Part shown: positions 39 to 43,925 of the stretch, one piece after another
Layout: the number at the start of each line of letters is the position of its first letter
How positions within the stretch are numbered: position 1 is the first letter of the stretch
Program-made: the position numbers and the translations under genes
Assembly: GCF_004379255.2 (NCBI RefSeq)
Contig: NC_056041.1
Coordinates: forward strand, 2,914,001 to 2,978,000
Length of the DNA: 64,000 nt
Source: Salvia splendens
Lineage: Eukaryota > Streptophyta > Magnoliopsida > Lamiales > Lamiaceae
Direction of reading: 5' to 3'
The notes under the pieces: generated by a model
Database searches by the model: none
Seen by the model: the letters and a program-made list of their open reading frames with translations, nothing else
Told to the model about the DNA's origin: nothing

Positions 39-1605
39 ATGGAATTTCAGTCAACCTTTAGTTTGACTACCGCCGCCCTCTTCCTCCTGACACCTGTCGT
101 TTTCTTACTCATAATCAAGTCACGTAGACAAAAACCACACCACCACCAGCTCCCGCCGAGCCCGCCGCGGCTGCCTCTGATCGGCCACGTCCACCATCTC
201 ATCGGCAAACTACCCCACCACGCCCTCACCGCCCTCTCCCAAAAATACGGCCCCGTCCTCCACCTTCGCCTCGGCCAAGTCCCCGCCGTCATCATCTCCT
301 CCCCGGCGGCTGCGCGCGAGGTCCTCAAATCGCAGGACCCCGCCTGCGCCGACCGCCCCGACAGCATCGGCACCAACATCATGTGGTACGACCAGGCCGA
401 CCTCGCCTTCAGCCCCTACGGCGAGCACTGGCGCCAGATGCGCAGGATATGCGTCCTCGAGCTCCTCAGCGCCCGCAACGTCCGCTCCTTCGGCCTCCTC
501 CGCCGCCACGAGGTCGACCGCCTCGTCGACACCCTCCGCCTCTCCGCAGGCCGGCTCTTCGACCTCACGACGGCGGTGTTCGCCGTCACCAGCGCCACCA
601 CGTGCCGGGCGGCGTTCGGGAAGGTGGTGAGGGGCCGCGAGGCGCTGATTAAGATGATGAGAGAGGCGGTGACGATGACCGGAGGGTTAGAGCTTGCGGA
701 TTTGTTTCCGTCGTCGAAGCTGCTGAATGTTCTCTGCTGGAATAGGTATAGGCTGCTGAGGATGCGGCGGCGGCTTGACCGGATTCTGGATGTGATCGTG
801 AAGGAGCACCGCTTGAAGAAGAGCGGCGAGTTCGGCGGTGAGGATATAGTCGATGTTTTGATCAGGATGCAGGAAAACAGAGAGCTTCAGATTCCAATCA
901 CGAATCACAACATCAAAGCTATCATTTTCGTAAGGCCATTACTTTTTTTAATCAGTTATACCGTTAATATATTTCTGACAAATATATATGCAGGATATGT
1001 TTTCTGCTGGAACTGAGACAACGTCAACGACTATTGACTGGGCGATGGCGGAGTTGATGAGGAACCCTGCTGTGATGGAGAAGGCGCAGGCGGAGATCAG
1101 AGCGGCCGTGAAGGGAAAAACGAGCGTCCAAGAGGGCGACTCGGAGGCGCTGAGATACCTAAAACTGGTGATCAAAGAGACTCTGAGGTTGCACCCGCCG
1201 ATTCCGTTGCTTCCGAGAGCGTGCAGAGAAGAATGCAAAGTTGATGGATATTCAATCCCGGTCAAAGCTAAAGTGGTGATCAACGCATGGGCCATGGCCC
1301 GGGATCCAAAATACTGGGACCGGCCCGAGATATTCTGGCCCGAGCGGTTTGAGGGGAGTTCGGCAGACTTCGCGGGCAGTGAATTGCAGTATATTCCTTT
1401 TGGGGCAGGGCGAAGGGCCTGCCCGGGGATAGGGTTCGGGCTGGCGACGGTGGAGCTGACGCTGGTGCAGCTTCTCTATCACTTTAACTGGAAGATGCCG
1501 GTGGGAACGAGCGTGGATATGGCGGAGGGCGATGGGGTCGCCGTCGGTCGGAAAAACGGTCTCTTTGTGGTCCCCACGCCCTATGATAATTCGATTGCTA
1601 TATGA
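39..1605 (+). CDS. CYP71-family cytochrome P450 (CYP71D/CYP71BE-like), two exons
   Basis: Membrane-anchored P450 monooxygenase of the ER; this family usually oxidises terpenoids or other specialised metabolites, but the substrate cannot be read here. Exons are 39-929 and 994-1605 with a 64-nt phase-0 GT-AG intron, giving 500 aa, the normal length. Visible in order: N-terminal hydrophobic anchor (about 10-26), proline hinge PPSPPR (about 40-45), I-helix AGTETT (302-307), ExxR in KETLRLHPP (E359, R362), PERF (413-416), and the haem loop [10 protein letters not shown] with ligand Cys440. No lesion is seen. The first roughly 600 nt of exon 1 are very G+C-rich at third positions, far above the surrounding DNA, which creates long shadow frames. 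It converges with a second P450 at 5.9-7.5 kb that has the intron at the same site, so they are probably old tandem duplicates. Family call is firm, subfamily is not. Confidence 0.93.
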
Positions 1606-2537: not shown

Positions 2538-2770
2538 TCAGAGTATCCTTATCACTGCTCTTGCCAAAAATCACAGATATGGGCTCGGATCCACTTTTAT
2601 TATTTTTTTACTTACTGCTCTAAGGCAATAGTACAACACCCACATGCATACTCTTCCGCCAGGACATGCTCAAGGGTCTCACCATTTTATTATTCAATTT
2701 AAATAAAAACATTTTCACAATATTAAAATACATTAAAAATACCTGAAATACTATTACAAATTACAAAAAA

Positions 2771-2860
2771 ATTAAAAATTACATAATTAAAATCATAAAA
2801 ATTAAAAATTACATAATTACAATCCTAAAAATTAAAAATTACATAATTAAATTCATAAAA
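2771..2860. repeat. Three tandem copies of a 30-bp AT-rich unit
   Basis: Three consecutive 30-bp units start at 2771, 2801 and 2831, each beginning ATTAAAAATTACATAATTA and differing by two or three bases. They lie immediately downstream of the transposase stop codon. Confidence 0.9.
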
Positions 2861-2873
2861 TTAAAAAAACGCA

Positions 2874-4152
2874 CTACTCGTGGCCGAATTTCGCCCAAAT
2901 GTATTTGATTAGGTCTTCTTGTAGCTCAGTGTGGGTTCGGGTATCGCGCATTGTGTTTCTTGTTTCGATCCTCTCGCCCACCGTCGTATGCACACCTCGG
3001 CGTGGGGGAGACCTCGCGGTTGAGCTTCCGGCTTCATCCTCGTCGTAAAAGTTAGTCGTCATCGGTCCTTCGTCAGCTATAATCATGTTGTGCAAGATAA
3101 TACACGTGTACATGATGTCGACGATATTCTTAACATACCACAGCCGAGACGGGGCCTTCACAATATTGGATCGGCCTTGAAGGACCCCAAGAGCTCTTTC
3201 GACGTCTTTCCGAGCAGACTCTTGACGTTGTACAAAAAGAACCCGTCTCGGGTCTTGCGGATTGCTGAACGTCTTCACGAAAGTCGACCACCTTGGGTAT
3301 ATACCATCGACGAGATAGTAACCCATGTGGTATGCATTTCCGTTGACGGTGAAGTCGATCGTCGGTGCTACACCATTCAAAACATCATTGAAGAGTGGTG
3401 AAGAATAGAGCACGTTCAAGTCGTTGTTGGATCCGGCAATACCGAAATATGCATGCCAAATCCATAGGCGGTAGTCGGCGACCGCTTCAAGGATAAGTGT
3501 TGGGTCGCCGTCTTTGTGGTCGCTTAAGTGTTGCCCCCTCCAAGCAGTCAGGCAATTCTTCCACTTCCAATGCATGCAGTCAATGCATACCGGGAAAACC
3601 GTGGACTATTTCGTGAAGACGAAGCAACCATTGACAATCATCGGTGGTGGGTGCCCGAAGGAATTCCTCACCGAAAGCATAACGAACGCCGTCGCAAAAA
3701 TTTTTAAGGCATAGGATTCCAGTTGACTCACCGACATGCAAATACTCGTCGAAGAGGTCAGTTGTTTGCCCAATAGCAAGTTGTCGGATGACACAAATAC
3801 ACTTCTGCAATGCCGAGAGACTTTGCCGACCGGTTGCGTCTCTACTTGGTTGAAAGTATTCAACACGGGCGGATAATGTGTTGACAATACGCATAAACAA
3901 CCGTTTTGACATGCGAAAATGGCGCCGAAAGTAATCTTTCAGAAACCGCGGCTAGTCGGAAAAATAGTCGACAACGAGCCTTTCGTTGGCTCCCTCCCGG
4001 TAACGAGGGATGTAGCGGCGAATTGATCTAGTTGGTCGAGGAGGAGGGGCGGGAGTAGTGGCGGCGACATAAGCTTCATAGGCGGCACGATATTGTTCAT
4101 AGTATTCTTGTTTTTCACGCTCCGCTTCCGCCATGATATCGGTGAAATCCAT
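2874..4152 (-). pseudogene. PIF/Harbinger (HARBI1/ALP1-like) transposase pseudogene
   Basis: Remnant of the DDE nuclease of a PIF/Harbinger DNA transposon. Reading the minus strand: an N-terminal segment (4152-3952) ends in TAG just after VVDYFSD. The same frame continues as PRFLKDYFRRHFRMSKR through 3580. It then shifts frame at HGFPGM, where a short stretch before the first catalytic region is missing. The other frame, from MHWKWKNC at 3575, runs to 2874. Family hallmarks kept: MHWKWKNCLTAW, the YYLVDGIYP aspartate block, the ESARKDVERALGVLQ glutamate block and CIILHNMII. One nonsense codon plus one frameshift make it inactive. The partner MYB-like ORF is not seen. Family identity is well supported. 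Confidence 0.85.
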
Positions 4153-11824: not shown

Positions 11825-14692
11825 ATGAGCTTCAATAGCGCTGCAGGGGGTACGTTAACTAGTATCCTTTGGTTGATTACTATAGTGTCTCAGCTATTTT
11901 TAGTCACATAATTTTGTGATTGTTACCAGTTACAGAATGTGTTATAAACACTTGTTTCTTACCATACATAGGTGGCCAATCATCTCGGACAACGTATGAG
12001 TTTGGAAGGACTCATGTCATCAGGCCAAAAGGGAGGCATCAAGCAACAATAATTTGGCTGCACGATCTTGGTGATAAAGGGTCGAGGTATTATGTCCGCT
12101 TTCGTTTGTAAGAATCTGATAGTCATTCATGTTGTTGATAGGTTGTTTCACTTTTTAATGGTGATACTTACATTCATCTTAAATTGCATGAATAGTATTG
12201 ATGAATTGTATGAATTCCGATTGGTCTAATCTTTGTACTAATTAAACTACAAACATGTGACTAATAAGCAAAGAGTGCATCGGATGCCTCAAATTTTGAG
12301 TTTTTACTCGTCTTTTCTTGCATAATCAACATGACGTCTGTGATGAGGATTTGTCGTCGAGTCTTTTAACCAAGTCTGGTACTAATTTACTATGTAGAAG
12401 ATGTAGAACAGGGGATCACTAACTCACTAACCACAATTTCCCACTTTTAAAAGCATGAAGTATTGTTTGTATCCATCTGGATATTTGAATCACAGGCTGT
12501 AAATTGTTGTATTTTAATTAAGAATTAGCCGGTCTGAGGATAGGACTATTGTCTTTGTCTATCATTATACTTAACCACTTAGTCAAAATTGTGGTCCCCA
12601 AAACTATGTAAGTTGCCACACTATGGAGATATAGATACACGAACTTTTGGAGCAAGTATAAACTCTTAACTCGCTACAAGTTTATGCTGTTATATTGTCA
12701 ACTTGATTAAAAAATGTTCCAGAGAATGATCTTCTTAACTCGTTTTGTTATTCAATACTATTCATTCTTCCTTCTAGACTGGTGTTGCTTACTATGTGTG
12801 AGCCAATGGATGCTCAAATATCAGAGTCAAGATATATTAAAATATTTAACTCTGGCAACTTTTTTAATCCTCAAGTGATGGTTAATGCAGTGTTATGCAT
12901 ATTCTTATCGTCGTTGCTGATCCACTGTGATTCTAATTTTATTCATATTTTTGCAGCTGGTCTCAGCAATTGGAAAACCTTCCTCTTCCGAATGTGAGAT
13001 ATTCGATATAATTCAAAGTCATCCCTTATCTTTCAACATCTGTGTGATGCAACAAATAACCCAATCCCTTTCTAGTTTGAAATAATGTTGATTGTCTCAT
13101 TTTAAAGTTTAAACTGATAATGCAGGTAAAGTGGATATGCCCAACTGCTCCGACTCGTCCAGTTTCTTTATTTGGGGGATTTCCTTGCACAGCTTGTAAG
13201 ATATTTTTCTTTACCCTATAACCATTTCGAACTTCTGCCACTGTAATTTCTATGCTTCTGCAAGCTCTAAATCAGTGGTGAATAATTTCTAAACAGTAGA
13301 TGGTGGATTTTCACTGTATTGAATAACATATTTATCTTCTTGACTGGCAGGGTTCGATGCACAGGATCTTTCAGAGGATGCACCCGACGATTTACAAGGA
13401 TTAGATGCATCAGCAGCACATGTTGCTAATCTCCTATCAACAGAGCCTGCCAACAGTAAGTTTCTACTTCAAAGCATCATAAATATGTTTCAGAGCTTGG
13501 TTAGAAATGAAAGAATCAACAAAACACAGAAAAACAATATCAAATTATTGGCTACAATTGTATATCATTGCAAAAGGTGTTTGGCTTCCAAAAGGGTGCA
13601 TATAGAATTAGACTGTCATTTAGTTTTTGATTTTCTAGGTGGTTTTCCAGAAGTTGTTTGCCTTTTTTTCTATGAAATTTGCTCCTTTACTAGAGACGTT
13701 TCACGATGAGCACATTTTAATCATCAAATTGTCCAGCGAACTCATTGGAGAAATGCTATGGTCTAATTTCGAAAGGATTTACAATAATCTCCCCGGTTAC
13801 ATAAGTTTAACAAGCACAAAAGGATCTTAATCGGAATTAGGAAGATCTCATGACCCTACACACAACTTAAACTATTACTACTTTTATGCATTGATTTCAA
13901 GTTGTGTACAAAATGCTGATGCATACTACATATTCACAGTCAAACTTGGTATTGCTGGCTTCAGTATGGGTGCTGCAACTGCTCTTTACTCTGCCACATG
14001 CCACATTTTTGGTCAATACTCAAATAGAAACCCGTACTTAGTTAACTTGAGCTGTGTTATCGGCCTCAGCGGCTGGCTTCCATGTTCCAGGTGCAACTCC
14101 CTTTCTCTGGCCTCAGTGACAACACATTTTACATAGCATAAATAATCAACATGCTCTTTTTGATCGCATGCTCTTTTGCACTCGACGGCTATTTGTTTTC
14201 TAGGATGTTAAGGAACCGAATTGAAAGGTCTAATGAGGCAGTTAGTCGTGCAGCATCATTGCCCATTTTGCTTTGTCATGGATCTGGTATGTATGATTTA
14301 CGTTTACTCGCTATCTCAAATGTTCAACATCCAGTTTCCCACTGCTATGATTGTGTTCTTGTTATCTAGACTACAATTTCATCATGCATTACTAGTTCCT
14401 ACATGAAAGAATCTTTGTTGCAGGGGATGACGTTGTGGCTTACAAACACGGAGAAAACTCTGCACGTACATTAAGTTTAGCTGGATTCCAAAACCTAATG
14501 TTTAGATCATATGGAGGGTACAGATACATCCAAATCTATTAACCTGTGTAACACCGAGTTAGCTAGCTTCTTGTTTTGTCCTAATGAATCTTATGTTTGC
14601 ATTCATGCAGGCTCGGGCATTACACCACCCAGGAAGAGATGGATGAAGTTTGTCTCTGGTTAGCTGCTCGATTGGGGCTTCAGGGATCGTAA
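11825..14692 (+). CDS. Acyl-protein thioesterase / carboxylesterase-like alpha/beta hydrolase, nine exons
   Basis: Serine hydrolase of the acyl-protein thioesterase/lysophospholipase family; relatives remove S-acyl groups from proteins in the cytosol. Exons: 11825-11849, 11972-12086, 12957-12993, 13126-13195, 13351-13455, 13940-14090, 14204-14286, 14424-14517, 14611-14692. All introns are GT-AG, every phase matches, and the product is 253 aa, the usual size. Seen in order: FGRTHVIRPKGRHQATIIWL, then HDLGD (39-43), WICPTAPTRPVSLFGGFPCTAWFD, nucleophile GFSMG (Ser126), IGLSGWLP, HGSGDDVVAY (catalytic Asp near 197-198), LGHYTTQEEMDEV (His230). The oxyanion loop is usually HGLGD; here it is HDLGD. 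The start MSFNSAAGG resembles the MSF-type N-terminus of plant homologues. Catalytic triad is intact, so probably active. Confidence 0.88.
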
Positions 14693-36624: not shown

Positions 36625-38312
36625 TTAGAAACGCTCCTGCAGATTGGGCTGCATCGGCTGCACGCGAAAGGCGAAGGGCATCTGCTGCTGCGCTTCATAG
36701 TCTGCGACTTGCTGATCGTACACGCCCTGCGCCTCCATCACGTTATCATCCATCGGATCCAGATGCATCTGCCGCTGCTCATCACAAAATTGAACATTTT
36801 TAATTTCACATATCTGTATTATGTAGATAAACTATTGATATAAGAAGCTTACCAGCTTGAATAGAAGGTTCTGGTTCTCCTCCTCCCTCATTTCATTCTG
36901 GAATTATTTTTAGTAACACAAACATTAGTAGACATACATAACATGTGTGGAAAAAGTGAGAAAAATTATATCCAATACTATTGAAATGAAAATGTGTGAG
37001 AATGTGGTGTGATATTTATACATGTTTCCTCATCATCCGCACAAACTCCATCTGTCATAGTGAAAAATAAAAGAAAATAAGGAGATTTTAGATACATAAT
37101 ATTTTAGAAAATATTGAATACTATATAATATGTAATCATAAGGACCTGTTTGGCTTTGAGAGTAGTAATTCCATTTTCAAGGGCTTCCTCCAACACCATC
37201 AGCTCCTTGTAATTCAAATTAGATATATCTTCTCCTTTCAGATGCCTGGGCCAAAAAAATTCTAAATTTTAAGAAAAATAAATGGGAAGATGGGAAACAT
37301 CAAGATAGAAAAAGGGAGGAAAAAGAAAACCCCAAATCCTTACAACCTCAATTGAATCTGCATGCTGTCATTTTCTTTCTTGATTCGATTGATTTCATTG
37401 TCCAAGTGCTGCATTTTTTTAGTGTTGGTATATGCATTAGTAGACCCTTTATAAAATGATAAATAAATAAACATAAATATGCAGATCTATAGATTAAGCT
37501 AATGATATATTCAATCAAAAAACCACTGAAATCTTGATAAGAACCAACAGGCCAAGAAGGAGCACATCAAGTACAAAAAGGGGAGCCCTACAACTGAATC
37601 TCTATTTGAGGGTACATAAATACATAAGTTTATTTCCCTTTCTTGTGCTAAGAAACTGCAGTAGTACTCATAATTTTTCTTTCACAAATTTTTGCAACCA
37701 AGGGAAAGAGAGAGAATGACAATTTTTTACCAGATCTGTTGACAGATGTAACATCTTATGCAGTTTTTGGAGTTCTTGTCATGGAAAAGTGCTAAAATGG
37801 TAGCTAGTAGCAGAAACAGAATGGGTCAAGGATAGATCCAGAGATGGAAACCTTCAAACTATATAAAGATCTTTCACAAAATCCAGTCTTTGAGACATTT
37901 TACACACTTTCAGCACAAACCCATGTTGGTTTTGCCAAATTCTTGAATTCTAGGGCTAAAATTTATGATATTCCACACACACAGTTAATACCTCATGTTT
38001 TGCATCCCAGAGCCTCTTTCCAGACAGTTTGTGGTACTGATCCAACATGTCAACAAGCCTTTAAAAGACAAACACAGAAATTAGGTAGTGAAACATCAAG
38101 AAACTATAAAAACACACAACATACGTAGTGGAGGGGCTGCAGAAATCGTGCATCTTGCCGGAGTTGGCGAAGATGATGACAGAAACATGAGCATCGCACA
38201 AAACGCTGATCTCCTTAGCTTTTTTCATGATCCCATTTCTTCTTTTGGAGTAGGTGACCTGCCTGTTGCTTGAGTTCTCAATCCTCTTGATCTCAATCTT
38301 TCCTCTACCCAT
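36625..38312 (-). CDS. GLO: GLOBOSA/PISTILLATA-type B-class MADS-box transcription factor, seven exons
   Basis: MIKC-type MADS factor of the GLO/PI lineage, which pairs with a DEF/AP3 protein to specify petals and stamens. Exons on the minus strand: 38312-38125, 38058-37992, 37408-37347, 37245-37146, 37051-37022, 36897-36853, and 36777 (or 36774)-36625. Sizes 188, 67, 62, 100, 30, 45 and about 153 nt match the canonical MIKC/PI layout; 214 (or 213) aa. The MADS box starts [20 protein letters not shown]. The K-domain shows [19 protein letters not shown] and [15 protein letters not shown]. The C-terminal PI motif [18 protein letters not shown] is the lineage signature. The acceptor of exon 7 is a GAGCAG (NAGNAG) pair, so one Gln may be optional. 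No lesion. Minor MADS-box changes ([16 protein letters not shown]) do not touch invariant positions that I can judge. Confidence 0.94.
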
Positions 38313-40358
38313 CTTCAAAGATCACTTTTTTTCCCCTCTATTTCTCTCTCTTGTTTATCCTTCTCACACCAGGAGAAACACTTTTAATGTTGAAGAAGGA
38401 GAGGGGAAATTGATAAGAATATGAGGGGTATGTAATGGCATTTTCCCTTTGTAGGAATGAGGGACAAGAAACTTTCGAAAAACTCAGCAAAAGACAACCG
38501 TTTAAGGAATTACGGTCTGTTGACAAAGCCTAGCCAACTGTAATAAATAAATAAAAAGATTAATTTTTTTTTTTTGTTATTCTCTTAGTTTCACCTTGTT
38601 GTCTTTTGGTCTCTCTATATCCTTGCAATTGAAGTGATGAAACTCAGTAATTTATTCATACTTGTAGATAGGGTTAGTAGGTTTCCAGTAATCTTGAAAT
38701 TAGGGTTTTCAGTGAGGCGGAGAGAAGAAATCATGCGGTTACTTGTGATTAGTGTGTTTCTTGAATTGAAATCTTTACCATCAAATCAAAATCAAAATGT
38801 TGGTCAGAGAAGGAAAATGGCTATTGATGGGAATTTTGAAGGGCTATAGCTCTATGAGATATGAGATGGGACAGGAAAGTGTTATCAATCCAGTTTTGAG
38901 TCTCAACAACATTCGACCACCAAATTAATAAGTGTGTAATCTAAGGCAAGATTTTAGTCAAAATGTCAAGTCTACGTAGCTCGATTCGATATTCCTGGCA
39001 AGGGTGAGGAACTCAATAAAATTATTGATCATGGGACTAAATAAAGTTCATGCAATCTTTTTTTATGAAAGATTGCTTAATTTTTCTAAATCATTTTTAT
39101 TACTTACTCCACATTACAAACAACTTAATACAGAGAATTTTTTAGGGACACAAAAATTGAGAGACAATTATTCACGTTGGAAAATTTTAAAAATAACAAC
39201 AATTTAGGACGCAAAAGAAAACATTCCTAAATTGAGGATAAATTAACTTAATTTTTTTTGTTTGTAGGGCGCTTCCAAATGCGTTCTCTAATTTTAGTTG
39301 TGACACCAACAATAAGGACGATTTTTATACCGTGGGTGGTATAGTTAAAAACACAAATTAATATCATTAATTGCATATAAAGATGTCCTTAATATACTCC
39401 TATAAAATTATCCTTGCGCAATGAGTGGTTGAGCTTGACCCTTCTCTATTTGCATGATTAATAGGCAATTACGTACATAATAAAATTAATTAATTAGGAA
39501 CTATTGAACGACATTTATCCTCGATACTTGTGTTTCCAGGAATGAAAGGTTGCTATCAAAATTTATGTTTGTTTGATTTATGTATTAAAAAAACTACATA
39601 TAGAGTATATATAGGTTTGCATGAGGTGATGTAAGATTGAACCTAAAACCTCTAAACCCTAATTAGGGAGAGTACTAGTATTATTTATGCATCAGCTTAG
39701 CCACTTGAGCTACGCGCCATGTTGACATATTAAATAAATGCTTACTAACATTACAATTATTACCGAAATACATAATTATTGTTTATAATCCTTATGAAAA
39801 CCACTATATAAATATTTTTAAAATTAATTAGGCACATTAATTTATATGTATTCTCAACTCCCAACTTCTACAAATGTGTGTTCGAAAGTTTTCTCGTCTG
39901 TTTAAATAGTGGGGTTGGTGTCTTGATTTGGACATATACATGAGATTTGAGTTTGATATCTCGTATTGGGCTTACTCTCTAGCCCAACTTCGAAATGCAA
40001 AATAAAAATGAAAAATATAAATAAAATGATGATTGATAGAGATACTGAGATACACAATATGGCAATAGTATAGAACCAATTAACGAAATCAAACTGTTGA
40101 AGATGTAAACATTAACATGTATCTGATTTTTTGAATAAAAGAGTATAACATGTATCTTGAATTATCCATCAACAACTAATTCAGCAAGAAACACAAATAA
40201 AAAACTTAAAACTACATTTTGACAATGTGAAACACAACTTGCCTGCTATTATGAACATATACAGATTTATATATATCCCTGTTTCAAACTGATAATATGT
40301 TAGCAGAAACTGATGGGATATTCGGAGAGGATACTGCTTCTCTGCCACGATACGGAGC
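38313..40358. other. Promoter side of the GLO gene and spacer
   Basis: Contains the 5' flank of the minus-strand MADS gene; no perfect CArG box (CC, six A/T, GG) was found. It also contains a tRNA-derived SINE at about 39590-39722. Otherwise AT-rich without a gene. Confidence 0.5.
39590..39722 (-). mobile_element. tRNA-derived SINE
   Basis: Minus strand: an A box TAGCTCAAGTGG (39712-39701) and a B box GGTTCAATCT (39643-39634) lie about 58 bp apart. They follow a tRNA-like head GCGCGTAGCTC, and the unit ends in a T run (GTTTTTTTAATAC) as many plant SINEs do. Internal distance and tail fit a SINE better than a tRNA gene, since no cloverleaf closes. Exact ends are uncertain. Confidence 0.6.
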
Positions 40359-43300
40359 TCACGCTCTGATCAATAACTCGTAGAGGTTACTGTTACTGTC
40401 ACCTTGAACGCGTTTCAACATTTCAAAACTCCTCCGACTGCCAAGAAAATCAATCCGTCTGAATTCTATATGACCGCACTCTGCTGTTTCCTTGCTCGAG
40501 TAGATGGACCTGAGCCGGTCAGCATGCCTCGAGTCTGTGTAGATGGCAACTTCTATTTCCTCGCTAGACATATTCTCCTAAGGATCAAGTGATATATAGT
40601 AAGATCACTGCATTGCATCATTGAATAATAAGATGCCAAGAAGAAAACATACCTGATAAAATGCATATATATAATCTAACACCTGCAAACATGTAAACCC
40701 TTTGTTGCTGAAGAATGTTCTCGAACAAGGGCCCATCTCAGAGAACCGGTCGACAGGGAACATGATCGTGAGGAAAGGGCCTTTTAGTATTAACTCCGTC
40801 TTCTCACTGCATTTGACATGTATGAAAAGCTATCAGATACAACAAAACTTTTCGATAGAAAATTGTTTTCATTGTAACATGCAGTTTTCAAGGTGCATAT
40901 GAGACTAGAGATGAGTTTTAGCTGACCTTTCTGTAAGAGGTCGAGTTAAGTTCACAAATGAAGCCTCTGATTCTTTTCCATCTTCTTTTGCATCAAAGAA
41001 CACGGGTGGCTGGTCTTCAGTGCCATTCTCGACACTTGAGGACTCTGTATAAATGGATGCAGTTGAGGTTGGCTCGGATACTGACCAGCAAATTGAATCC
41101 AAAAGACTGCCTGGCGTTATTGGTCGTATTGGAGTCTGGCATGTCTGCAATCAAATACCACCACCAAGTCATCACCAGATTAACCATATCCTTTTATTAA
41201 TGAGTTCAAGGGACAAAATCAACCTGCATTTGACGGTTCCGACGCTTTCTGACACCATCTTTGGCTAGGGTCACCTTTATTTGCCTTGCTTCATGACTGG
41301 CTTTATCAGCAGAACAAGTCACCCTACTCGCTCCCTGAAAAGATTCCTAGTGAAAACTCAAACGGAAAGGAATATAACATCTACTCAAAAACAGAAAAAA
41401 AAATGAAGTCCTTAACAATATATTCCATAAAATAAAGAATAAGTTTTGGGAATTTCTGATCAAACCACTTCCAATTATATCTATCAAGTTCACACGGCTG
41501 TGGATATAAAAAATTCGAGTTATCAAGTGATTGTAAATGTAATAACGGAAGTCGGGAAAAGAGAAAGTAAGGGTTAAGTAGAGGCATTTAGTCCATACCT
41601 CATGGGAAACATCATGCCGGAGGTTATCAACCCTCGCTCCAGTATACCTGGCTAGATCAGTTGATAAATGGACAAGTCTTTGAAGAGATTTTTCTTTTGC
41701 AGACTTTAGAACCCATAGTGGCTGAGGGGGAGAAAAAGAAGGCATCAAGAGCACGATATGTTAAATTTCACTGGATAGAACAAGTGAATTCACACAATCC
41801 TAACCAAAATATCAACACAAAAATCTGCCAGGCCGCACCCTTATTCAGATCTCTAATACACAAGGCAAGAACCGCTTAAATAAATAAGCAATATTACAAG
41901 TGACATGGAGAACTTACTGTTACAACGTTGGTTGAGTGTCCCAGATATTTTTGTACAGAAGGTCCTTCACATACTACATAATTAACATTGCAGCCAACAA
42001 ACCATTGATCCACTAAGGAAGCACCTTCGGCAGAGAGAGCCTCAGAAACCTAAGAACACATTTGATGCAGTTTTCTCAAAATGCATTAAAAATAGTTTAG
42101 ACGAGGCAGTACGATTGGTGAACAAACGGAGACCATAGATTTAATCAACTGCGAGCCTACCTTACTGAGAAGTTCTGCCGGTACATCTACATCAACATAA
42201 AAGGATTGACCGGAAAAGGATGATGAAGTAGTGTATCTTTTACTCTCCCTCTCTGAAAACTGGGAGCCAGGAGCTCCACAAAATTCGGGTTGTTTATTAT
42301 GCTTAAGCAAACCAGAAGGCAAACACGAATTTTCAGCACCAGAGTTCTGATCAAGCCGTTTCAAGTCATTACTTGCCAGACCATTATCTCCGATGCTATT
42401 AACACTGTACAGTGTTTCGCTTAGCCTAACTGAAATAAACCCAGTGGTTATCTCCCATTGTAGCTCAAACAGAATGCATGCAGTAGAGACTATTGCATCA
42501 ACCAAGTCCGAGATGCATAATACATGCCAATATCTTTCTATTACAGAAGTACCTCAGTATCAGTACAGGCGGATACAGATATCGTTATCTTTGGCACAAT
42601 ATAAGTATTAGCAGGTGCACATATATATCTTATCAAAATAATTTTTTTGCAAATGAGCAGTATTTGAAGTTTAAGAAGCTCACTTAGAAACAGGCTACAT
42701 CGAAACCGGAAACACAATTAACACTGGTCATGGGGTTTAATGGATAAAGATGGTAACCACAAGGTGTAAAAACTTATAAAGTCTACCAATGCAGAAGAAT
42801 TATTATGCAAAAGACAAATAAATGGAACTATTACCATTCCTTTTGACGCTATCCACAAACCACCCAATTGTTACCAGGAGTAAACCATTTGTAGTTCCAT
42901 GTTGCATAGCATGCTCAAACTTACGTCCTTGAAAGCTGTAATAAACGGTTAAGGGTAACACAACCATACTCAGGCTTATTAAACAAGTAAAAATAGTGGA
43001 TTTAGTTACAATTATGTTCGTCTGATGCAACGGAAGGAAGAAAAAACTAATATCTCACCACAAGATAATTTGATGGGAGATTCACTAAAATAAAACTCTT
43101 GTTTCTATATCAGTAATAGCCAAATGCAGTTGAGGATAATATAAAGTGCTATTGAACCTAAATACTCTAAAACGTGCACTGACAAAAGGATATCTGAACC
43201 ACCAAGTGAGTGCAATGAGGATGGAGATGAGGACTATACAGGCCTCCCAATCTCTCCGTAGCTTCCTTTACCTGCTTCCTTGTTTCTACAAATGAACACA

Positions 43301-43925
43301 ATAATTGAGAAGATATATTTGTACTAAATTATTAACAGGACATCAATAATTCCTCACAATGGGAAAACATTTTAGAGTCACAAATGGTTTATATATGTTG
43401 TAGAACAATTAACAGTTAAAAAAAGTGGGATCACCAATTAACAAAACAGCTTGATTCAACCACAATAAAACAAGGTTGATCAACCATCACTTTCAACTAA
43501 AGAAGGGATTGAAATGGCCACTTGCTTCTCTTTATGAAAAGCTAAATTGCAAGAAGCTTCTCAATTATATTGAGACTGCATAAAACTTACTTAAATTCAT
43601 CAATCTCAACACACATATTCCCAAACTAAGCAACAACAATCACAATACTGATACAAGACACATATAAATCACAGAGCTAAACACATTTAGTAACAGTATG
43701 CATACCTTTAGAGAGCCCCGTCACGCAAATGACAAGGCCGGAGAAAGGGCCTCTCGCTTTCACGGTTTTCACCGGAGTTTCAGGCACTGCGGCGGCAGCT
43801 GGAGAAGGCGGCTCCAAAGAAAACGTCGAGATTCCTCTGAATGAGGAAGAGAAATCCATGAACAGCCTTGAACACCCCTTCGCAGCGATCACCTCCACCC
43901 TCCCTCCCCCAATTCCACCACCCAT
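40359..43925 (-). CDS. Plant BRCT-domain protein, ten exons, one U12-type AT-AC intron
   Basis: Single N-terminal BRCT domain (about 59-146), a fold that binds phosphopeptides in DNA-damage and cell-cycle proteins; plant relatives are annotated as BRCT DNA-repair-like proteins. Exons on the minus strand: 43925-43706, 43285-43194, 42937-42835, 42429-42161, 42049-41918, 41721-41599, 41334-41224, 41144-40927, 40806-40653, 40577-40359; phases agree, 546 aa. Seen: FSGLVICVTGLSK (61-73), RLGGLYSPHLHPHCTHLVVQ, SFQGRKFEHAMQHG, GWFVDSVKRN with Trp130, VRLSETLYSV. The C-terminus has a second conserved block, FTCLQVLDYIYAFYQENMS, plus a basic stretch VRKRRNRQ near 340-350. The second intron begins AT and ends AC. 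The gene looks intact; the exact role is unknown. Confidence 0.88.
42938..43193 (-). other. U12-type AT-AC intron (256 nt) in the BRCT gene
   Basis: The 5' splice site is ATATCCTTTT, matching the U12 AT-type consensus ATATCCTTT exactly. The branch site CCTTAAC lies 11 nt before the end, and the intron ends TTAC. Splicing here joins LVVQ to SFQGRKFEHA, the expected BRCT reading, in phase 0. Using conventional GT-AG sites nearby does not give this join. Confidence 0.88.

What the first reader, a model, noticed from the sequence alone, without database searches (positions are those of the whole stretch)
42938..43193. U12-type AT-AC intron in a BRCT-domain gene
The intron starts ATATCCTTT, has CCTTAAC 11 nt before its end, and ends in AC. 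All three U12 signals are present. Splicing at these sites restores the BRCT core (LVVQ then SFQGRKFEHA) in frame, while nearby GT-AG choices do not. AT-AC introns are a small minority even among U12 introns, and automatic annotation often misses them, so the gene is likely mis-annotated. Minor-spliceosome dependence could also couple this gene's expression to stress or cell-cycle state.
Basis: partly seen in the sequence, partly recalled or inferred. Interest (0 to 1): 0.78.

Follow-up and report, generated by a model that had tools for sequence, protein, structure and literature searches.

The report
AT-AC minor-spliceosome intron, plant BRCT gene
A sage gene for a two-BRCT-domain protein carries a rare type of intron, with AT and AC at its ends, that many database gene models of its relatives get wrong; the intron looks real and conserved but belongs to a known class.

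Summary
On the minus strand, 43193..42938 (256 nt, phase 0, intron 2 of 9) begins ATATCCTTTT, holds CCTTAAC with 11 nt after its second A, and ends TTAC. A first-order Markov model of the window gives such a pattern 0.015 times per strand. Splicing it gives a 546-aa protein, 98% identical to a Salvia hispanica model, with two BRCT domains and DUF6699. The junction is intact in 35 of 35 'lgn' homologues listed, which look like transcript assemblies (14 groups at 90% identity), but in only 58 of the 85 other listed models. The wrong models act as an accidental assay: read-through often gives I-S-F (ATATCCTTT), L-N (CTTAAC) and a Y/H/N codon (xAC) before exon 3, in eudicots and grasses. So this is a conserved U12-type AT-AC intron. 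It separates Thr69 and Arg76 from Lys110, spaced like the phosphate-binding triad of TOPBP1 BRCT1; retention would stop the protein at 112 aa. It is a good new example of a known kind. No reads of this species were available; regulation by stress or cell cycle is untested.

The parts
40359..43925 (-). Whole coding span of the BRCT gene (10 exons, 1641-nt CDS with stop, 546 aa)
   Evidence: Exons joined; product 98% identical over 100% to P0001
43706..43925 (-). Exon 1, aa 1-73 and first base of codon 74; holds Thr69 of BRCT1
43194..43285 (-). Exon 2, to aa 104, ends ...CTHLVVQ; holds Arg76
42938..43193 (-). U12-type AT-AC intron, 256 nt, phase 0
43184..43193 (-). U12-type 5' splice site ATATCCTTTT
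42948..42954 (-). Branch-site heptamer CCTTAAC, 11 nt after its second A to the intron end
42938..42939 (-). 3' terminal AC; the exon then begins AGC, so an AT-AG alternative lies 2 nt downstream
42835..42937 (-). Exon 3, from aa 105, begins SFQGRKFEHA; holds Lys110
42161..42429 (-). Exon 4
41918..42049 (-). Exon 5
41599..41721 (-). Exon 6
41224..41334 (-). Exon 7
40927..41144 (-). Exon 8
40653..40806 (-). Exon 9
40359..40577 (-). Exon 10 with stop codon

Best explanation
43193..42938 is a genuine AT-AC intron of the U12 class. Inferred mechanism: U11 and U6atac read ATATCCTT, U12 pairs with CCTTAAC and bulges the branch A, and the minor spliceosome joins ...GTGGTTCAG to AGCTTTCAA, giving LVVQ-SFQGRK. 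The other eight introns of the gene are GT-AG. The product is a two-BRCT protein with a C-terminal DUF6699. Its first BRCT keeps the Thr-Arg-Lys triad of phosphopeptide-binding BRCTs, so it probably works as a TopBP1-like phosphopeptide adaptor. If the intron is not removed, a stop comes after 112 aa and the Lys and everything after it is lost. Shown here: sequence signals, frame, conserved junction, traces of conserved intron ends in relatives' wrong models. Inferred: dependence on the minor spliceosome, adaptor function, effect of retention in the cell.
For: Motifs and spacing; best of 80 in-frame pairs and the only one giving LVVQSFQGRKFEHA; product 98% identical to P0001; Pfam PTCB-BRCT 3.1e-15 at aa 64-119, across the junction; the three TopBP1 chains shown align through the junction. 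Junction intact in 35 of 35 'lgn' homologues (14 groups at 90% identity) against 58 of 85 others. A gap within 8 aa of this junction in 22 of the 85, against 16 of 595 cases at seven other junctions. Read-through: 25 of 167 proteins fetched hold [VI]VQIS (18 with ISF), in eudicots and grasses; among 28 models with other sequence before exon 3, the last residue is Y, H, N or D in 21 (background 0.19), and L-N stands with N at -4 in 13 and at none of the offsets -2 to -9 otherwise. Triad T69, R76, K110 invariant in 33 proteins that I picked out of 167, Physcomitrium and Chara included; spacing 7 and 34 as in TOPBP1 Thr114/Arg121/Lys155 (PMC6175577, passages).
Against: No RNA reads of this species were seen. 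The two bases before CCTTAAC are AC where the consensus has TT. An AT-AG choice 2 nt downstream keeps the frame (Q-I-F in place of Q-S-F) and scores only 3.5 bits less; three of 85 non-lgn models have I at this place, and P0125 and P0142 as well. Intron ends in relatives are inferred from peptides, which fix only some bases; 7 of the 28 end in T, E, L or P; rows are not independent, and favoured long models by design. The 'lgn' label is unexplained; I read it as transcript assemblies because the longest contig is below 3.1 kb in 33 of 35 rows, against a coding span of 3567 nt here; the other two have 5755 and 4208.
Confidence: 0.96

Rival explanations
1. Same U12-type intron, but spliced as AT-AG 2 nt downstream (43191..42936), wholly or in part, giving Q-I-F.
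For: ATAT and ACAG allow the shift; the frame stays open and the profile score is second best, 948.7. Three of 85 non-lgn models have I there.
Against: 35 of 35 lgn homologues have S, N or G there, none I. ATATCC fits the U12 5' site; the shifted start ATCCTT does not.
Confidence: 0.02
2. A GT-AG intron of the major class, for example donor 43179 or 43173 with the acceptor ending at 42936.
For: 21 of 80 in-frame pairs are GT-AG; best score 940.8. Several models of relatives appear to use such sites.
Against: These two insert residues into a conserved BRCT stretch, which 35 of 35 lgn homologues lack, and GT-AG pairs score 11 bits or more below AT-AC.
Confidence: 0.01
3. An AT-AC intron removed by the major (U2) spliceosome, as known for some sodium-channel introns.
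For: Terminal dinucleotides alone do not fix the class (PMC2831892, passages).
Against: C at +5 and +6 with a U12-type branch site; the U2-type AT-AC introns of sodium-channel genes have G at +5 (same paper).
Confidence: 0.01

Closest known systems
U12-type AT-AC introns of plants, e.g. the CBP20 gene (PMC5932401, abstract start and passages seen)
   Same: AT-AC ends, U12 branch site, one such intron among others in the gene, kept across plants, splitting two functional parts of the protein
   Different: Another gene; here the intron cuts inside one BRCT domain, and its role in processing has not been tested
TOPBP1 / Rad4 BRCT domains (PDB 6hm5, 2xnk, 4bmc by sequence)
   Same: First BRCT with the Thr-Arg-Lys triad at the same spacing as TOPBP1 BRCT1
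   Different: The plant protein has two BRCT regions and DUF6699 in Pfam; no further BRCT was found there
Non-canonical introns missed by ab initio annotation (PMC5716242, passages seen)
   Same: Non-GT-AG sites missed, causing wrong models
   Different: Here one intron seen through many species' models

Membership tests
U12-type intron | 5' splice site [AG]TATCCTT (recalled consensus) | tested here: met
   ATATCCTTTT at 43193
U12-type intron | Branch site TTCCTTRAY (consensus as given in PMC5932401) | tested here: met
   7 of 9 positions: CCTTAAC exact, preceded by AC instead of TT
U12-type intron | Short branch-to-3' end distance (about 10-15 nt, recalled) | tested here: met
   11 nt
U12-type intron | No polypyrimidine tract before the 3' end | tested here: inconclusive
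   73% pyrimidine in the 15 nt before the terminal AC, which include the branch heptamer itself
U12-type intron | Position and signals conserved in orthologues | tested here: met
   Inferred from peptides of read-through models; no DNA of relatives seen
U12-type intron | Removal depends on U11/U12/U4atac/U6atac | not testable with these tools
   Needs RNA from mutants; the window's genome could not be searched (11 unanswered calls, 9 to 60)
TopBP1 family | Phosphopeptide triad Thr/Arg/Lys in a BRCT | tested here: met
   T69, R76, K110 invariant in 33 picked sequences; spacing as
TopBP1 family | Long array of BRCTs (recalled: nine in human TOPBP1) | tested here: not met
   Two BRCT regions only, aa 58-134 and 210-286, at E up to 1
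TopBP1 family | Phosphopeptide binding | not testable with these tools
   Needs a binding assay

The most novel reading that the evidence does not exclude
The AT-AC intron acts as a switch kept by selection since before monocots and eudicots split: when minor splicing is slow (cold, stress, non-dividing cells), the message keeps a stop between the Thr/Arg and the Lys of the phosphopeptide pocket, so a TopBP1-like adaptor is made only in cells with enough minor-spliceosome capacity.
Probability: 0.08. Interest if true: 0.6.

Novelty: new member of a known kind. Interest (0 to 1): 0.27.

Why it matters
It gives a clear, checkable case of one minor intron that spoils gene models of a conserved plant BRCT protein: 27 of the 85 non-lgn models's list depart from the conserved junction. 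Correcting it gives back the BRCT with its phosphopeptide triad in those records. It also shows a cheap way to notice conserved U12 introns without the DNA: wrong models translate the intron ends into recurring I-S-F and L-N peptides.

Tried and rejected
Considered: GT-AG, GC-AG and AT-AG alternatives, scoring below the AT-AC pair. Further U12-like pattern matches in the window, from 2543 to 3143, 3148 or 3150 (+) and 11862..12680 (+), were set aside after a look at the open frames around them, where I saw no exons that they would join; this was by eye, without a homology search. No Rfam family reached its gathering score in the window. Literature: searches for U12-type intron with BRCT, minor spliceosome with BRCT, plant and U12, TOPBP1 with minor introns and AT3G43930 (my recalled guess at the Arabidopsis orthologue, not confirmed) each gave 0 papers in the held library. 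The listings were seen; from them I read passages of six papers and no paper in full. Supplementary tables and databases such as U12DB could not be searched, so the intron may already be listed there. A structure model of P0001 from the 33-row alignment is weak overall (mean pLDDT 51.2), about 70-80 in BRCT1; it puts the junction in the loop between strand 100-103 and helix 109-118. I did not search it against fold libraries.

Full report
What was claimed.

The sequence. The minus strand reads ...CACTTGGTGGTTCAG|ATATCCTTTTGTC...TGTTACCCTTAACCGTTTATTAC|AGCTTTCAAGGACG. A ten-exon model from 43925 to 40359 gives a 1641-nt CDS and 546 aa, with eight GT-AG introns and this one AT-AC intron, second of nine, phase 0, 256 nt. 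CCTTAAC has 11 nt after its second A. The two bases before the heptamer are AC, not the consensus TT. A strict pattern (ATATCCTT, CCTTAAC at 40-500 nt, then AC after 4-9 nt) occurs once on the two strands; 200 simulated strands of 64 kb under a first-order Markov model gave 3.

Alternatives. I listed GT-AG, GC-AG, AT-AC and AT-AG pairs around the junction: 80 are in frame and stop-free (34 AT-AC, 21 GT-AG, 18 AT-AG, 7 GC-AG). Against a profile of 20 of the 35 lgn homologues the proposed pair scores 952.2, the AT-AG pair shifted by 2 nt 948.7, and the best GT-AG 940.8. Only the proposed pair gives LVVQSFQGRKFEHA. So the frame alone does not exclude GT-AG; homology does.

The protein. Pfam finds PTCB-BRCT (64-119), BRCT (58-134), BRCT_2 (210-286) and DUF6699 (369-530). 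The best PDB match by sequence is TopBP1, aligned through the junction. P0001 of Salvia hispanica is 98% identical over the full length, P0002 of S. splendens 97%; the window is thus probably from a Salvia or near relative, species not determined.

Junction in relatives. One search listed the best 120 of 566 homologues. Of the 35 with source 'lgn' alone, 35 have the intact junction; they fall into 14 groups at 90% identity, so they are fewer independent witnesses than 35. Of the other 85, 58 are intact, 3 have the same length with I first, and 24 are disrupted. Models with a gap within 8 aa of each junction among the 85: 5, 22, 5, 0, 0, 33, 2, 1, 3 for junctions 1-9; among the 35 lgn rows: 0 at all but junction 6 (27), a naturally variable place. 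Junction 2 stands out: 22 of 85 against 16 of 595 at the seven others without junction 6. The Fisher P values there (4e-4 against lgn, 5e-12 against the other junctions) ignore relatedness.

Wrong models as evidence. Of the 167 proteins (P0167 is an animal TopBP1), 25 hold [VI]VQIS, 18 of them ISF, after which the peptides mostly diverge. ATATCCTTT translates as I-S-F. They include Lamiales, Asterales, Vitales, Myrtales, Rosales, Malvales, Sapindales and the grasses Avena (ISL), Dichanthelium and Digitaria (names; orders recalled). In 28 models with other sequence before exon 3, the last residue is Y, H or N in 21 (Y, H, N or D being 19% in the eight residues before), as xAC would give, and L-N stands with N at position -4 in 13, at none of the other offsets from -2 to -9, as CTTAAC would give. 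Four end in T and one each in E, L and P, so not all fit; some of the 28 are exon skips or GT-AG choices rather than read-through. Close relatives (for example two Escallonia and several Gossypium models) are counted apart. Physcomitrium and Chara proteins have the junction at the same residue count; whether they hold the intron is unknown.

Meaning for the protein. T69, R76 and K110 are invariant in 33 aligned proteins from Salvia to Chara, picked by me from the 167, mostly ones with an intact junction. TOPBP1 BRCT1 binds phosphate with Thr114, Arg121 and Lys155, called the triplet common to phosphopeptide-binding BRCTs (PMC6175577, passages): same spacing of 7 and 34. The three residues lie in exons 1, 2 and 3. 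Retaining the intron adds ISFCQCTF and a stop after 112 aa; skipping exon 2 or exon 3 also gives early stops, after 78 and 106 aa.

Rarity. AT-AC ends make up about 0.06% of plant splice sites (PMC6310983, passages), and 81 of some 119,000 Araport11 introns as counted in PMC5716242 (passages). Among U12 introns the AT-AC share is put at 4.8% to one half, depending on the source. Phase 0 is a less usual phase for minor introns, about 22% on average (PMC10639083, passages); the same passages give a 5' bias of minor introns in 112 of 290 streptophyte species, which an intron 2 of 9 fits.

Verdict. It is a new member of a known kind. Regulation through the minor spliceosome is open.

Noticed in passing
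window 38061-38315 (-): First exon of a MADS-box gene (SRF-TF, 1.3e-24), about 2 kb downstream of the BRCT gene; by its letters it resembles PISTILLATA/GLOBOSA (recalled, not tested).
   Followed up: partly
window 2874-3605 (-): Plant transposon protein (Plant_tran, 1.7e-79; DDE_Tnp_4), a PIF/Harbinger-like element (recalled), on the strand opposite to the P450 frame near it.
   Followed up: partly
window 979-1605 (+): C-terminal part of a cytochrome P450 (1.6e-63).
   Followed up: partly
P0045, P0047, P0101: Three models have the right length but I in place of S after VVQ/VVL; this may be an AT-AG choice, a GT-AG choice or an annotation artefact.
   Followed up: no
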